Below, piece after piece: positions 14,872-19,131 of a stretch of DNA of 64,000 nt. The notes beneath the pieces are model-generated. The model was not told where the DNA came from, made no database searches, and was given only the letters and a program-made list of their open reading frames with translations. Source of the stretch: Flammeovirgaceae bacterium 311. GTDB lineage: Bacteria > Bacteroidota > Bacteroidia > Cytophagales > Cyclobacteriaceae. The stretch is taken from contig CP004371.1 in the NCBI GenBank assembly GCA_000597885.1, positions 1,612,001-1,676,000 of the forward strand, read 5' to 3'. The stretch's first letter is position 1. Every line of letters starts with the position of its first letter. The translations under genes and the position numbers were made by a program.

Positions 14872-15351
14872 ATGGATTCTACAGTACAGCCGCAACGTAT
14901 AACTATTGAACAGATCGGGTTTAGGTACGGTCTGATGCTGGCCGGGGCTAACATTGGTTTCTTTCTGCTGATGGCGCTGTTTGGTCTGGAAGACGAAATA
15001 TGGTTGAGATTTGTAAATCTTGTGTTCATATTTCTTTTTGCCTACCGTGGTATGCAGTATTTTAAACACCACACCCAAAATCACTGGACTTACCTGAAAG
15101 GCCTGGGCCTGGGTATATTCATAGTTTTGGTAGGGGCCGCTGTTTTTGCGGTATTCCTGGGTTTATATGGTTTACTCAACCAGCAGTTTGTTGTTTCCAT
15201 CAATGAAGCTACAAACATGAGCATGAATTTCAATCCTGTCTTTATTGCCTTTATTGCTTTCGTTGAGACGATGATCTATGGTTTTATACTGGTATTTGCA
15301 GCCATGCAGCGTCTTAAAACCACCCATATGCAGGATGCAGTGCATATCTGA
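14872..15351 (+). CDS. DUF4199-like membrane protein
   Basis: 159 aa with four hydrophobic segments (~30-48, 53-68, 82-107, 128-150) and a short soluble N-terminus. The pattern resembles DUF4199, a Bacteroidota inner-membrane family without a known function. The start is firm: an AAAAAGGAGG ribosome-binding site lies just before the ATG, and a textbook Bacteroidota promoter lies upstream. It converges with the kinase gene, whose end is 21 bp away. Confidence 0.65.
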   Translation: MDSTVQPQRITIEQIGFRYGLMLAGANIGFFLLMALFGLEDEIWLRFVNLVFIFLFAYRGMQYFKHHTQNHWTYLKGLGLGIFIVLVGAAVFAVFLGLYGLLNQQFVVSINEATNMSMNFNPVFIAFIAFVETMIYGFILVFAAMQRLKTTHMQDAVHI

Positions 15352-15372: not shown

Positions 15373-17376
15373 CTATTTCTGATGGTGCTTTTTCAACACT
15401 GCAATGGCCTGGTCAAAAGATTTCTCCAGATGCAGAATAGCCTGACGGAGCTGTCTGGTATCTGCAGTAAGTACAATTGAGCGGCATATTTGAATAGCAT
15501 GTTCGAGCTCTTCAGCTTCCAGGAGCTTGATTGTCATTTTTATTTTGTGGGTAATCTCTGCCATTTTACCGGCATCCCTGCCCAGCATGGCTTCGGTATA
15601 GTTTTTTTTATAATCCTGAAAGTGTTGGATTGTGAGCTGTAACAGCTTTTCTAAAGTGGCACTGTTCCCTTTGGTAATATGCAGGTACTGCTGCAGGGAA
15701 ATAATAGGCTTATGATTTTCTGGAGCCTGTTCAGGGGAGTAAAGGTTGTTGAAAACAGCTGCCTGATGAGTTCCACCGGAAACAGCAGGGCTGGGGGCAC
15801 CATAACGTACGATGACGTTAAAAAGATCTTCGGGCCTAAAGGGCTTGCTAAGGAGATCTGTAATTCCGGCTTCCACAATTCTATCTTTATAATCAAATCT
15901 GGCGGAGGCCGTAAAAGCAATGATTGGTATATTACTGCAATCTTTGTTTTTAAGAGACCTGATGGCAAGGCTCGCTCTATATCCATCCAGAACCGGCATC
16001 TGCAGATCCATCAATACCAAATCATAGGTATTTTGCTCTACCTGCTCCACAGCTTGCGCGCCATCGGTAGCCACATCATACAGCACCCCCCATTCATCCA
16101 GATATTCGGTTACCACCATTACATTAATGGCGTTATCTTCGGCCAGCAGCAGCCGTACCCCTCTAACGGTTCTGTTCCCCTCGGCAACACTACGCTCAAT
16201 GGGTATATCAGCAGCCTCCTCCCTGCCAAAGGGCAGTTCCAGGTTAAAATAAAATTCTGAACCAACACCTGCCTTGCTTTTAACATTAAGTTTACTGCCG
16301 AACAAATGTAACAGGCGTTGGCTGATGGCCAGCCCCAGACCTGAGCCCCCATATTTCAAGCCAATTTCCGGACTGGCCTGGGCAAATTCCTCAAAGATCT
16401 TTTCCTGCTTGTCTGCCGAAATTCCGATACCGGTGTCTTTCACCATGAGTAAAAACCTGACAATCTGGCCCTGCTGCTCCAGCAGCTGCAGGTGCAGGCT
16501 TACTGTTCCCTGCTCGGTAAACTTTAGAGCATTGCCCAGCAAGTTGGTAATCACCTGCCCCAGCTTTACCGGATCTCCAAATACATACGGAGGCATTTCA
16601 TCATCGAGATGCAGATACAGCTGCAGCCCTTTTTCTTCGGCCTTAAAATGCAAGCCATGCACAATGCTGTGCAGCAGATGATTGATGTTGAAGTATTTCT
16701 CTTCCAGCGATATCTTTCCGGATTCTATTTTGCTGAAGTCCAGGATATCATTGATCAGGTCTAGCAGATTCTCTGAAGAAAATTTGAGCACCTCGATATA
16801 CTGCGCCTGTTGTGGGCTAAGCTCTGTTCGCTGCAGGAGGTTGGCAATACCAATAATGGCATTCATGGGTGTGCGAAACTCGTGACTTACCGTTGAAAGA
16901 AAAGCGGCCTTTACCTTTACCGCTTCTTCTGCCTTTTTCTTGGCATGTAACAGTTCCAGTTCGTATTTTTTCCTGTCGGTAATATTGAACACCGTTACCC
17001 GGATCAGCACAGGGACCCCAGCCTTGTCTTTTACCTGAACTGCATTAATCAACACAGGCAGTCCTCCCCCCTTTTTCTGCAGCAGTTCATAATTCAACTC
17101 ATTCACAAATCCCTGCATCTTCAGCAAAGGAGCATGATGGGTTTCGTAAAATATTTTTCCTCCTATAGCAAAAAAGTTCTGCAGCTTTTTTTCAGAAAGC
17201 ACCTCCTGGCGCTCATACCCTATCCAGTTTAAAAAAGTACTGTTCGCTTTTATAATAAGACCGTTTGGAAGTGTAGACAGATAACCACAGGGGGCATTGT
17301 CATAGAGCTCTTCCGCACTCTCTTCTATCAGAGCTGCTGTAATGTTCTTATCTACATTGTGCTTAGCGTCCTTCAA
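15373..17376 (-). CDS. PAS hybrid histidine kinase (PAS-HisKA-HATPase-REC-HPt)
   Basis: 667 aa. Order: PAS (~25-140), HisKA with H165 in STVSHEFRTP, HATPase (N box NLLGNALKF ~278-286, G1 DTGIGI, G2 GGSGLGLA), receiver with D457 in LVLMDLQMP, and an HPt-like end with H610 in EITHKIKM. No transmembrane segment, so it is cytosolic. The PAS segment IGGKIFYETHHAPLLKMQGF resembles the PAS found in RsbP-type phosphatases that partner RsbQ. Its ATG overlaps the stop of the upstream RsbQ-like hydrolase gene by 4 bp, so the two are co-translated. Expected role: a phosphorelay whose input is set by the hydrolase. The downstream response regulator is not in the window. Confidence 0.9.
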   Translation of the reverse strand: MKDAKHNVDKNITAALIEESAEELYDNAPCGYLSTLPNGLIIKANSTFLNWIGYERQEVLSEKKLQNFFAIGGKIFYETHHAPLLKMQGFVNELNYELLQKKGGGLPVLINAVQVKDKAGVPVLIRVTVFNITDRKKYELELLHAKKKAEEAVKVKAAFLSTVSHEFRTPMNAIIGIANLLQRTELSPQQAQYIEVLKFSSENLLDLINDILDFSKIESGKISLEEKYFNINHLLHSIVHGLHFKAEEKGLQLYLHLDDEMPPYVFGDPVKLGQVITNLLGNALKFTEQGTVSLHLQLLEQQGQIVRFLLMVKDTGIGISADKQEKIFEEFAQASPEIGLKYGGSGLGLAISQRLLHLFGSKLNVKSKAGVGSEFYFNLELPFGREEAADIPIERSVAEGNRTVRGVRLLLAEDNAINVMVVTEYLDEWGVLYDVATDGAQAVEQVEQNTYDLVLMDLQMPVLDGYRASLAIRSLKNKDCSNIPIIAFTASARFDYKDRIVEAGITDLLSKPFRPEDLFNVIVRYGAPSPAVSGGTHQAAVFNNLYSPEQAPENHKPIISLQQYLHITKGNSATLEKLLQLTIQHFQDYKKNYTEAMLGRDAGKMAEITHKIKMTIKLLEAEELEHAIQICRSIVLTADTRQLRQAILHLEKSFDQAIAVLKKHHQK

Positions 17377-18170
17377 TTTTGGTAAAGAAAGTGTTCTATT
17401 GCGGCTATGGTTTCATCGGGGGCGCTTAGGTGCGGACAATGACCGGTTGCCTCTAGAACAACCAGTGTACTTTGGGCCAACTGCTTTGCCACATACTGCC
17501 CAACCTGTTGTGGAGCAATTACATCTTCGGAACATTGAAGAATGAGGGCAGGTACCGTTAGCTTCAGGAGGTCATCTCTGTTATCAGAAAAAAAAGTAAC
17601 CTGTGCAAACTGCTTTGCAATTTCAGGATCGGTGCTGCAAAAACTATTCGTTAGCTCCTCTCCCAGCTCTGGTCGGTCGCCATTTCCCATAATAACGGGG
17701 GCCATGATACTGGACCAACCAAGATAATTGCTTTCCAGGGAGCTCAGCAGAGATTCTATATCTTCTCTTGAGAACCCCCCATAGTAATCACCCTGGTTGA
17801 TATAACAGGGAGAAGGACCTACCATCACAAGCTTTTGAAAGGTCTGTGGTTGCCTGACTGCGGCCAGTACACCCACCATGGCACTTACAGAGTGGCCGAT
17901 AAAAATAGCATTGGCAATGGAATGGGCTTTACAAATCTCGAGCACATCATCTGCATAGCCCTGCAGGCTGCTATATTTCTCCGGATGGTACGCAGCACTG
18001 TCAGACTTGCCATGCCCAACATAATCGAACAGCACCAGTTTAAAGTATTTTTCGAAGGCTGGAGTAATATAGCGCCACATATGCTGATCGCACCCAAACC
18101 CATGGGCGAAAATCATAAACTGCGTTCCCTGTCCAAAAACTTTTACATTAAACCGTTTATCAATATCCAT
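17373..18170 (-). CDS. RsbQ-like (KAI2/D14-related) alpha/beta hydrolase
   Basis: Alpha/beta hydrolase close to Bacillus RsbQ along its whole length: FGCDQ, FDYVGHGKSD, GHSVSAM with the nucleophile Ser, LVMVGPSPCY, YYGGF, FCSTDPEIAKQFA, LILQCSEDVIAP (Asp) and GHCPHLSAPDE (His). The triad is S101/D223/H251 counted from the longer frame start at 18191. I place the start at 18170 because GGGGGA sits 6 nt before that ATG; 18173 and 18191 are alternatives. In Bacillus RsbQ acts with the PAS phosphatase RsbP in energy-stress signalling, and plant strigolactone/karrikin receptors share this fold. Here the partner is the overlapping PAS hybrid kinase. Ligand unknown. Confidence 0.9.
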   Translation of the reverse strand: MDIDKRFNVKVFGQGTQFMIFAHGFGCDQHMWRYITPAFEKYFKLVLFDYVGHGKSDSAAYHPEKYSSLQGYADDVLEICKAHSIANAIFIGHSVSAMVGVLAAVRQPQTFQKLVMVGPSPCYINQGDYYGGFSREDIESLLSSLESNYLGWSSIMAPVIMGNGDRPELGEELTNSFCSTDPEIAKQFAQVTFFSDNRDDLLKLTVPALILQCSEDVIAPQQVGQYVAKQLAQSTLVVLEATGHCPHLSAPDETIAAIEHFLYQN

Positions 18171-18437
18171 CATCAATCCCCCGAAAATCATTGCTATGTG
18201 CTACGCACACTTTTAAATGTATAACTTTTAGTTAAATTTTCTTAAATTTATTCAACATTTTAGAATCTATCAATGCCGCAAATGCAATATTGACTGATAC
18301 ACTACTTCAGCTTTTTTTACCATGGTATATGGAGCGAGCTCCTGGGGTGACTGGCGGTGACTTTGTGAAGTGCAGCCGGTAAAAGCTGCAAGAAATGCAG
18401 GATTAAGGACTCCCAGATCTGCTCTGCTCTATACTAA

Positions 18438-18493: not shown

Positions 18494-18579
18494 GCAGAAC
18501 ATGCACTGCTTCAGTGTATAGTTTAATATGACTTAGTGTTAAAGTATCAATAAAATCAGAGCAGTGCTGAACATGGGGT

Positions 18580-19131
18580 TTACCACGGATTATTCTTAGC
18601 ATTGCCCATCACCTGACCACGAATTTCACCTCCGGGATATTGATCCGTATGAACATTCACATAGGTCTGCCCTGCCAGCATCAGCTCTATTAAATCTTAA
18701 AGAGAAGCACCTGCCAGAGAACCGATCAGATCGTCTGCAGTAATGGTGCCCTGGGCTAATATGCCACTGAACCTGCCGGGGATTGGCATTGGTGGTGGGC
18801 CATCAGGGTACAACCATACTACCACCACACCATTTGAACCCACAGGAGCCACGTGAATGTGAGCCATGCGCAAATTTTCAATATTGGCCACAATCAGCTT
18901 ATAGCTAAGCTCCGTACCATCTTTGCTTAGCTGAAAAATAGCCTGGCCGGTAGCCTTTGTCTCAGCCACCGGAACCTCCTGATCGCCCCCAAGGTGCGCC
19001 CGCATGTTCACGACCCTGTAGCCTCCCTTTATAGCGGAATCATCCTGTAATACAGGTTCAATTCCCTTGTCATCACATGCCGTGAAAACAATTAAAAGAG
19101 CAGATACATACAGTAAAATTTGTTTTTTCAT
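18580..19131 (-). pseudogene. CHRD-domain lipoprotein gene interrupted by an in-frame TAA
   Basis: The N-terminal 144 codons encode a lipoprotein signal (lipobox near IVFTAC) and most of a CHRD domain (AHLGGDQEVPVAETKATGQ, then AHIHVAPVGSNG). A TAA at 18697-18699 stops translation. The same frame continues for 38 codons with the expected end of a CHRD domain (LIELMLAGQTYVNVHTDQ, then PGGEIRGQVMGN) and stops at 18580-18582. CHRD domains bear a conserved end of the form YVNVHT..NPGGEIRGQ, so the part past the stop is clearly homologous. The gene is thus nonsense-broken (or has a sequencing error, or readthrough). The terminator at 18438-18493 fits the ancestral stop. Confidence 0.8.

What the first reader, a model, noticed from the sequence alone, without database searches (positions are those of the whole stretch)
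15373..18170. RsbQ-like hydrolase fused by operon to a PAS hybrid histidine kinase
Seen: the hydrolase matches RsbQ in nearly every motif, including the Ser-Asp-His triad and GPSPCY/YYGGF blocks, and its stop overlaps the kinase ATG by 4 bp. Known: in Bacillus, RsbQ precedes RsbP, a PAS-PP2C phosphatase, and plant KAI2/D14 receptors are the same fold. Inferred: here a PAS domain of the RsbP type (IGGKIFYETHHAPLLK) is attached to HisKA-HATPase-REC-HPt, so a butenolide-like or other small molecule may be sensed by the hydrolase and relayed by phosphotransfer instead of partner switching.
Basis: partly seen in the sequence, partly recalled or inferred. Interest (0 to 1): 0.75.

Follow-up and report, generated by a model that had tools for sequence, protein, structure and literature searches.

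The report
RsbQ-type hydrolase paired with sensor kinase
A small hydrolase of a kind that bacteria use in signalling sits next to, and probably switches on, a sensor kinase; such pairs were described in 2011, so this is a good new example of a known kind, and it led us to relatives in which the same hydrolase has apparently swapped its partner.

Summary
On the minus strand an RsbQ-type alpha/beta hydrolase (17373-18191) overlaps by 4 bp a PAS-HisKA-HATPase-REC-(probable) HPt kinase (15373-17376); the kinase ORF starts with TTG, not ATG. The closest solved structure of the hydrolase is RsbQ (E 1.8e-96), with an intact Ser-Asp-His triad. The PAS domain is of the RsbP class by profile (182.6 bits; next place in the genome 30.2). 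The pair is conserved: 90 of 102 distinct fetched loci, in ten named phyla, have this PAS directly downstream. The butenolide ligand is unsupported.

Worth following: the HPt-like tail, and RsbQ relatives without the PAS. In Hymenobacteraceae all 47 top hits to a small SpoIIAA-like family lie 59-107 bp downstream of an RsbQ. In 173 unique hydrolases, cap residues N155 and G158 occur together in 116 of 116 PAS-paired and 1 of 57 others: a candidate docking signature, resting on about four evolutionary events (p 0.125).

The parts
17373..18191 (-). RsbQ-type alpha/beta hydrolase, 272 aa from the ATG at 18191 (likely true start: ATG at 18170)
   Evidence: phmmer to RsbQ 1wom E 1.8e-96; Pfam Abhydrolase_6
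17889..17891 (-). catalytic Ser101 codon
   Evidence: aligned to the GHSV motif of RsbQ; 173 of 173 unique relatives
17523..17525 (-). catalytic Asp223 codon
   Evidence: 173 of 173
17439..17441 (-). catalytic His251 codon
   Evidence: 173 of 173
17718..17729 (-). cap motif N155-Y-L-G158, candidate PAS-partner signature
   Evidence: N155 and G158 together in 116 of 116 PAS-paired and 1 of 57 other unique hydrolases; RsbQ 1wom and 3qvm have NYIGW, 7ukb and the two plant proteins shown NYxAW
17373..17376 (-). 4-bp overlap TTGA: hydrolase stop and kinase TTG start
   Evidence: sequence
15373..17376 (-). PAS hybrid histidine kinase, 667 aa
   Evidence: AlphaFold2 model mean pLDDT 78.7, pTM 0.42
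16975..17307 (-). RsbP-class PAS domain (residues 24-134)
   Evidence: profile of 44 RsbQ-paired PAS domains that excludes the window: 182.6 bits, next place in the genome 30.2; pLDDT about 90
17098..17166 (-). F-alpha helix region of PAS (residues 71-93) with I75 F76 T79 H80 P83 L84 L85 Q88 E93
   Evidence: conserved columns; I75, T79, H80, L84, L85, Q88, E93 are each shared by at most 1 of 7 PAS domains from genomes without RsbQ
16717..16911 (-). HisKA dimerisation/phosphoacceptor domain, H165 at 16882-16884
16234..16578 (-). HATPase_c domain with N, G1 and G2 boxes
15811..16149 (-). receiver domain, phosphoacceptor D457 at 16006-16008
15379..15693 (-). probable HPt (residues 562-666), phosphoacceptor H610 at 15547-15549
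   Evidence: H-K invariant in 8 of 8; helical bundle, pLDDT blocks 80-91; Pfam Hpt sub-threshold in 3 of 8, not in this protein

Best explanation
It is an RsbQ-RsbP-PAS ('Q-PAS') two-part sensing module feeding a hybrid histidine kinase. The two proteins are made together from one bicistronic operon (inferred from the overlap). The cytoplasmic hydrolase binds, and perhaps hydrolyses, an unknown small hydrophobic molecule in its pocket (inferred from the family), docks on the F-alpha face of the N-terminal PAS domain of the kinase dimer (inferred from published RsbP genetics and from conservation here), and changes the long helix that runs from the PAS domain into the HisKA helices (helix seen in the model, switching inferred). 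The kinase then runs a His165 - Asp457 - His610 phosphorelay (residues shown, transfer inferred) to a separate, unidentified response regulator. Cap residues N155 and G158 of the hydrolase are proposed to be part of what makes it compatible with PAS.
For: RsbQ is the best PDB match, triad intact. Class PAS. The nine published class positions, by constant offset, hold the majority residue in the window at seven, and a residue of the same kind at two (F69 where L is commoner, K74 where R is commoner). Gene pair in 90 of 102 distinct fetched loci (91 of 103 before removing one duplicate). Reverse test in 395 genomes of the phylum: all 21 class-PAS places at 116 bits or more lie in 20 of the 22 genomes with RsbQ, and the next 12 places (97.4 bits and below) lie in genomes without it; 13 of the 21 had served to build the profile, 8 had not. 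Kinase, receiver and HPt acceptor residues present. Continuous helix 133-182 from PAS into HisKA in the model. Published genetics, two-hybrid and pull-down data on RsbQ-RsbP (PMC3183031).
Against: No complex was modelled here and no binding was shown for this pair. The ligand is unknown. The HPt is below Pfam threshold, and its His is Gln in 4 of the 15 compared kinases that have a tail (Pontibacter and three Myxococcota). The PAS ends in NITD, close to the DIT motif that the 2011 paper says the class lacks. C30, one of the nine positions, does not separate the class here (C in 6 of 7 RsbQ-less PAS domains). 12 of 103 fetched loci lack the PAS, two of them at contig ends. The N155/G158 signature rests on about four partner changes (sign test p 0.125 for N155, 0.25 for G158). 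The full-length model has pTM 0.42, so domain placement is unreliable.
Confidence: 0.82

Rival explanations
1. The hydrolase is mainly an enzyme: it makes a diffusible product or cofactor that the PAS domain binds, and the two proteins need not stay bound (Model 1 of the 2011 paper, loosened).
For: The catalytic triad is kept in 173 of 173 unique relatives and is required in B. subtilis according to PMC3183031. In some Bacteroidota the PAS partner is replaced by a SpoIIAA-like protein; two solved SpoIIAA-like proteins were likened to carriers of small nonpolar molecules (start of abstract of PMC2954212, listing).
Against: The class-specific residues of the PAS domain cluster on the F-alpha helix, where F55A abolishes binding in B. 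subtilis (PMC3183031), and hydrolase cap residues track the partner; both favour contact.
Confidence: 0.3
2. The hydrolase is an ordinary esterase that happens to lie upstream of a PAS kinase.
For: Alpha/beta hydrolases are common: 22 Abhydrolase_6 places in this genome.
Against: Only this one matches its own kind strongly: 622.9 bits to itself, next place 40.2. Adjacency to the same PAS class recurs in 90 of 102 loci over ten named phyla.
Confidence: 0.02
3. The C-terminal domain is not a working HPt but a structural or degenerate bundle, so the relay ends at Asp457 or passes back to His165.
For: No significant sequence match to Hpt; His replaced by Gln in 4 of 15 compared kinases with a tail.
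Against: H610-K611 invariant in 8 of 8 Bacteroidota members aligned and helical bundle in the model; the ArcB profile aligns through residue 664.
Confidence: 0.25

Closest known systems
RsbQ-RsbP of Bacillus subtilis (PDB 1wom/1wpr for RsbQ)
   Same: Hydrolase gene directly upstream, triad, GPSPCY/YYGGF and NYxGW motifs, N-terminal PAS of the same class, helical linker.
   Different: Output is a hybrid histidine kinase with receiver and probable HPt instead of a PPM phosphatase.
Q-PAS histidine kinase pairs, Nadezhdin et al. 2011 (PMC3183031)
   Same: Same module and same output class in Gram-negative bacteria; three of their kinases have a C-terminal receiver.
   Different: The main text does not mention an HPt (0 occurrences) or Bacteroidetes, Cytophaga or Spirosoma (0 each); its Figure 2, which lists the species, is not held, so such members may be in it. 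Here the PAS ends NITD, close to the DIT motif that they say the class lacks.
Plant KAI2 / D14 receptors
   Same: Same hydrolase family and triad; four-helix cap and topology as in RsbQ (PMC3548789, passages).
   Different: More distant: 208-211 bits against 326 for RsbQ; cap motif NYxAW rather than NYxGW; their partners are plant proteins, not PAS kinases (recalled).
BarA/ArcB-type hybrid kinases
   Same: HisKA-HATPase-REC-HPt order (recalled for BarA/ArcB); among the best NCBIfam profiles (372 and 295 bits).
   Different: Far below those equivalog cut-offs (890 and 838); input is an RsbP-class PAS at the N-terminus with no long region before it for membrane segments.

Membership tests
RsbQ-PAS (Q-PAS) module | RsbQ homologue encoded immediately upstream of the PAS protein | tested here: met
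   4-bp overlap; RsbQ 1wom E 1.8e-96
RsbQ-PAS (Q-PAS) module | RsbP-class PAS, most N-terminal in the protein | tested here: met
   182.6 bits against a profile of 44 paired PAS domains not including it; next place in genome 30.2; residues 24-134 of 667
RsbQ-PAS (Q-PAS) module | Nine class positions (C10, L13, L48, Q53, F55, C56, Y59, E72, P86 of RsbP) | tested here: met
   C30, L33, F69, K74, F76, Y77, H80, E93, P107 by constant offset (20, then 21 after one residue). Seven hold the commonest residue of 92 sequences, F69 and K74 the second commonest of the same kind. The RsbP sequence itself was not aligned.
RsbQ-PAS (Q-PAS) module | No DIT motif at the end of the PAS domain (reported contrast, not a definition) | tested here: inconclusive
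   Window has NITD, so the strict D is absent. Among 92 paired PAS domains D is at the first position in 29, I at the second in 26, T at the third in 35, so the contrast does not hold cleanly in this set.
RsbQ-PAS (Q-PAS) module | Helical (coiled-coil) connection to one of the output domains (PPM, histidine kinase, GGDEF) | tested here: met
   Histidine kinase; continuous helix 133-182 in the model. Coiled-coil propensity itself was not computed.
RsbQ-PAS (Q-PAS) module | Intact catalytic triad of the hydrolase | tested here: met
   S101, D223, H251
RsbQ-PAS (Q-PAS) module | Direct binding of hydrolase to PAS | not testable with these tools
   Single-chain structure prediction only; needs pull-down, two-hybrid or complex modelling
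Hybrid histidine kinase phosphorelay protein | HisKA His, ATP-binding boxes, receiver Asp and Lys | tested here: met
   H165, N/G1/G2 boxes, D457, SKPF
Hybrid histidine kinase phosphorelay protein | HPt domain | tested here: inconclusive
   H-K invariant in 8 of 8 and bundle predicted, but no significant profile match
KAI2/D14 butenolide receptors | Recognition of karrikin or strigolactone | not testable with these tools
   No ligand evidence; cap motif differs

The most novel reading that the evidence does not exclude
RsbQ hydrolases are interchangeable small-molecule receptors that have switched partner protein more than once. PAS-coupled members carry the cap signature N155..G158, which forms part of the docking surface; in Hymenobacteraceae one line dropped PAS, lost the signature and took a SpoIIAA-like small protein as steady operon partner, a signalling or ligand-carrier unit that the searches made here did not find described. 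The window's kinase is then one branch of a wider receptor family whose partner can be predicted from two residues.
Probability: 0.3. Interest if true: 0.65.

Novelty: new member of a known kind. Interest (0 to 1): 0.38.

Why it matters
The module itself is known, so the pair is a confirmation and an extension to a probable phosphorelay in Bacteroidota. The 2011 paper left open what the RsbQ class senses and whether it acts as enzyme or receptor, and the plant receptors KAI2 and D14 share its fold. The survey gives a concrete handle: two cap residues that separate PAS-coupled from other RsbQ proteins, and natural relatives with another partner, so the docking surface and the question of enzyme versus receptor can be tested by simple swaps in B. 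subtilis laboratory strains.

Tried and rejected
Rejected: chance neighbour (pairing survey); a true protein fusion (no hydrolase ORF of the 80 named loci carried the PAS at E < 0.01). Looked for and not found: an RsbP-class PAS in the PDB (three weak partial matches); papers on RsbQ in Bacteroidetes (one paper, a Chryseobacterium genome comparison, listing only), on RsbQ with STAS proteins as partner (13 listings, none titled on this) or on SpoIIAA-like with Pontibacter (10 of 51 listed). The 2012-onward 'RsbQ' search returned 113 papers, 40 listed, most about a Rett syndrome questionnaire. A solved-structure match for the SpoIIAA-like partner was not significant (2ook E 0.36 with 5 sequences, 0.71 with 25), so that fold assignment is tentative. 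The tree test of the signature did not reach significance. The structure of the SpoIIAA-like protein could not be predicted and the kinase model could not be searched against the PDB because the machine was busy.

Profile A3 contains 13 of the 21 phylum places it then found. Of the 12 RsbQ-less PAS places, seven were used: two had no locus and three I had translated on the wrong strand and dropped. Five of the 47 SpoIIAA-like places belong to the genomes from which profile A4 was made. In one search I copied only part of the RsbQ table, which was itself cut; so 'only 2 of the next 20 near an RsbQ' is against that part, and 2 of 45 class-PAS places found no listed RsbQ. The hydrolase comparison used 80 chosen Hymenobacteraceae regions (20 of 38 PAS-paired, 7 of 7 short-PAS, 40 of 47 SpoIIAA-paired, 13 with neither). 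Two of those 13 (L266, L270) have a kinase gene about 300-350 bp downstream on the same strand, without a detected class PAS; they count as 'neither'.
Full report
What is there. On the minus strand of the window two genes overlap by four bases. The first encodes a 272-aa alpha/beta hydrolase (17373-18191, probably starting at the ATG at 18170), the second a 667-aa kinase (15373-17376) that starts with TTG, not with ATG. Pfam finds PAS_9, HisKA, HATPase_c and Response_reg in the kinase, all over their cut-offs. The next gene downstream is convergent (14872-15351, plus strand), and about 500 bp separate the hydrolase from the next upstream gene on the same strand (18697-19131), so the two look like an operon of their own (inference).

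The hydrolase. Its best match among solved structures is RsbQ of B. subtilis (1wom, E 1.8e-96, 265 residues), then Olei00960 (3qvm, 2.8e-76), an alpha/beta-hydrolase (7ukb, 1.4e-61) and plant KAI2/D14-type proteins from 2.3e-61. Within the genome nothing else comes close: 622.9 bits for itself, 40.2 for the next. The catalytic Ser, Asp and His are identical in all 173 unique relatives compared.

The PAS domain. The 2011 paper names nine class positions of RsbP-PAS. At a constant offset the window has C30, L33, F69, K74, F76, Y77, H80, E93 and P107. In 92 PAS domains (91 RsbQ-paired, one of them a duplicate, and the window) seven of these are the commonest residue; at two the window has the second commonest of the same kind (F for L, K for R). 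The RsbP sequence itself was not available, so the match to RsbP is by numbering. A profile of 44 RsbQ-paired PAS domains that excludes the window scores it at 182.6 bits; the next place in the genome has 30.2. Compared with 7 PAS domains from genomes without RsbQ, the class differs mainly at I75, T79, H80, L84, L85, Q88 and E93 in and after the F-alpha helix, and in the linker, for instance at Y138 and E141. This agrees with the paper's finding on F-alpha. Two points do not agree: C30 does not separate the groups here (C in 6 of 7 of the outgroup), and the window PAS ends in NITD, close to the DIT motif that the paper says the class lacks; D, I and T at these positions are found in 29, 26 and 35 of 92.

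The output. The phosphoacceptor His165, the ATP-binding boxes, Asp457 and the receiver Lys are present. The C-terminal 100 residues form a helical bundle in the AlphaFold2 model (mean pLDDT 78.7, bundle blocks 80-91, pTM 0.42). An H-K pair (H610-K611) is invariant in 8 of 8 Bacteroidota tails. Pfam Hpt is matched only below its cut-off, in 3 of 8 of these and not in the window protein; a PDB profile search gave nothing. In Pontibacter (L100) and three Myxococcota the His is Gln (4 of 15 kinases with a tail). I call it a probable HPt, functional in the window's line.

Conservation. In 395 genomes drawn from the phylum, 22 have an RsbQ at E 1e-45 or better (24 places). The class PAS lies directly downstream in 19 of the 23 loci outside the window. 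Of the other four, one ends at a contig edge and its PAS is found at the edge of another contig (G104), two have no PAS nearby (L055, L056) and one is a distant hydrolase (39%) followed by a different hybrid kinase (L058). In reverse, all 21 PAS places at 116 bits or more are in 20 of these RsbQ genomes, and the next 12 (97.4 bits and below) are in genomes without; 13 of the 21 had served to build the profile, 8 including the window had not. In 80 named loci taken with the 23, 91 of 103 have the PAS directly downstream, which is 90 of 102 after removing one genome present twice. Outputs by local similarity search in these 91: PAS-HK 47, PAS-HK-REC 17, PAS-HK-REC-HPt 8 (all Bacteroidota), PAS-GAF-PPM-ATPase 8, PAS-PPM 7, PAS-GGDEF-EAL 1, PAS alone or cut 3; ten of the proteins were checked in Pfam. 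In six of the named Bacteroidota loci a small receiver gene (130-147 aa) follows the PAS kinase (L061, L062, L067, L070, L081, L137; L070 checked in Pfam).

What is known. Nadezhdin, Brody and Price 2011 (PMC3183031; abstract and parts 1-4 of 7 of the main text read, plus term searches; figures not held) described 45 such hydrolase-PAS pairs with three kinds of output, including three kinases with a C-terminal receiver, and showed that PAS is necessary and sufficient for RsbQ binding in yeast and that F55A breaks it. They left open whether the hydrolase delivers a product to PAS or is itself the receptor. A 2025 eLife paper (PMC12143880, passages) mentions an AlphaFold2 model of 2RsbP/2RsbQ and cites the kinase-coupled forms. 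The finding is therefore a new member of a known kind. HPt and Bacteroidetes do not occur in the 2011 main text, but the species list of its Figure 2 could not be seen.

How it works. Best reading: the hydrolase senses an unknown small molecule, contacts the F-alpha side of PAS in the kinase dimer, and the continuous helix from PAS into HisKA carries the change to the kinase, which feeds a His-Asp-His relay to an unidentified regulator. Shown here: the residues, the pairing, the helix in a model. Inferred: binding, ligand, switching, transfer. A butenolide ligand is not supported by anything seen.

A partner swap. RsbQ genes without the PAS turned up in Pontibacter and Adhaeribacter. In 140 genomes of a family that holds such genomes (one search finds five of the named loci again in it), 117 have an RsbQ at E 1e-60 or better and 45 the class PAS at E 1e-25 or better. 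A small protein family built from five of these loci (A4) has 47 places at 180 bits or more, all 47 lying 59-107 bp downstream of an RsbQ on the same strand; of the next 20 places 2 are near a copied RsbQ row, upstream of it. Pfam likens the protein to SpoIIAA-like only below its cut-off (3 of 25 members at E 0.05 or better, best 0.0011). Seven of the 45 PAS places belong to short proteins of 213-238 aa, in which by eye the tail resembles a HisKA helix pair and no ATPase domain was detected; three of these also have a SpoIIAA-like gene upstream. That the family is Hymenobacteraceae is recalled from the genus names.

A candidate signature. In 173 unique hydrolases (116 PAS-paired including the 7 short-PAS, 40 SpoIIAA-paired, 17 with neither), N155 and G158 occur together in 116 of 116 PAS-paired and 1 of 57 others; D155 is found in 35 of 40 and 16 of 17. 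RsbQ and Olei00960 have NYIGW, 7ukb and the two plant proteins shown NYxAW, so G158 marks the PAS-paired bacterial class and N155 is shared with KAI2. The motif lies in the region of the four-helix cap (cap known from PMC3548789, passages; the placement is mine). On the tree there are four partner changes; N155 goes with the partner in 3.8 of 4 independent pairs (p 0.125) and G158 in 2.5 of 4 (p 0.25), none the other way, so the statistics are limited by the number of events.

Verdict. Observation confirmed with one correction (TTG start); interpretation right in its core, but published; ligand unsupported. The partner swap and the signature are the parts worth following.

Noticed in passing
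L104:5852-6295, L092:5856-6284, L098:5242-5655, L112:5868-6269, L118:5866-6276 and L199-L238: A conserved 130-150 aa SpoIIAA-like protein directly downstream of RsbQ in Pontibacter/Adhaeribacter relatives in place of the PAS protein; 47 of 47 top places are 59-107 bp downstream of RsbQ.
   Followed up: partly
window 17718-17729 and alignment of 173 unique hydrolases: Cap residues N155 and G158 track the PAS partner: both in 116 of 116 PAS-paired, 1 of 57 others; only about four independent partner changes.
   Followed up: partly
L259-L265, L121:5813-6442: RsbQ followed by a short PAS protein (209-238 aa) whose tail by eye resembles a HisKA H-box helix pair with no ATPase domain; L259-L261 also have a SpoIIAA-like gene upstream of RsbQ.
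   Followed up: partly
L058:4512-7804: A more distant hydrolase (39% identity, cap motif NYYAW like KAI2) directly upstream of an 827-aa hybrid kinase with two receivers and no detected RsbP-class PAS; possibly a second kind of hydrolase-kinase pair.
   Followed up: no
L266:1984-4752, L270:1605-5000: RsbQ without class PAS but with a kinase gene about 300-350 bp downstream on the same strand, in L270 followed by two small receiver genes.
   Followed up: no
L068, L074, L079, L096, L107, L109, L115, L130: In Actinoplanes and related genera the RsbQ partner is PAS-GAF-SpoIIE phosphatase-HATPase_c_2 in one chain, i.e. phosphatase and an ATPase of the anti-sigma kinase type together (L068 by Pfam, the others by similarity).
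   Followed up: no
window 18560-19131 (-): CHRD-domain gene whose frame is interrupted by a stop at 18697-18699; the expected end of the domain seems to continue in frame behind it.
   Followed up: no
L100, L080, L097, L120: The HPt phosphoacceptor His is Gln in these four Q-PAS hybrid kinases (Pontibacter and three Myxococcota), suggesting a degenerate relay domain.
   Followed up: no
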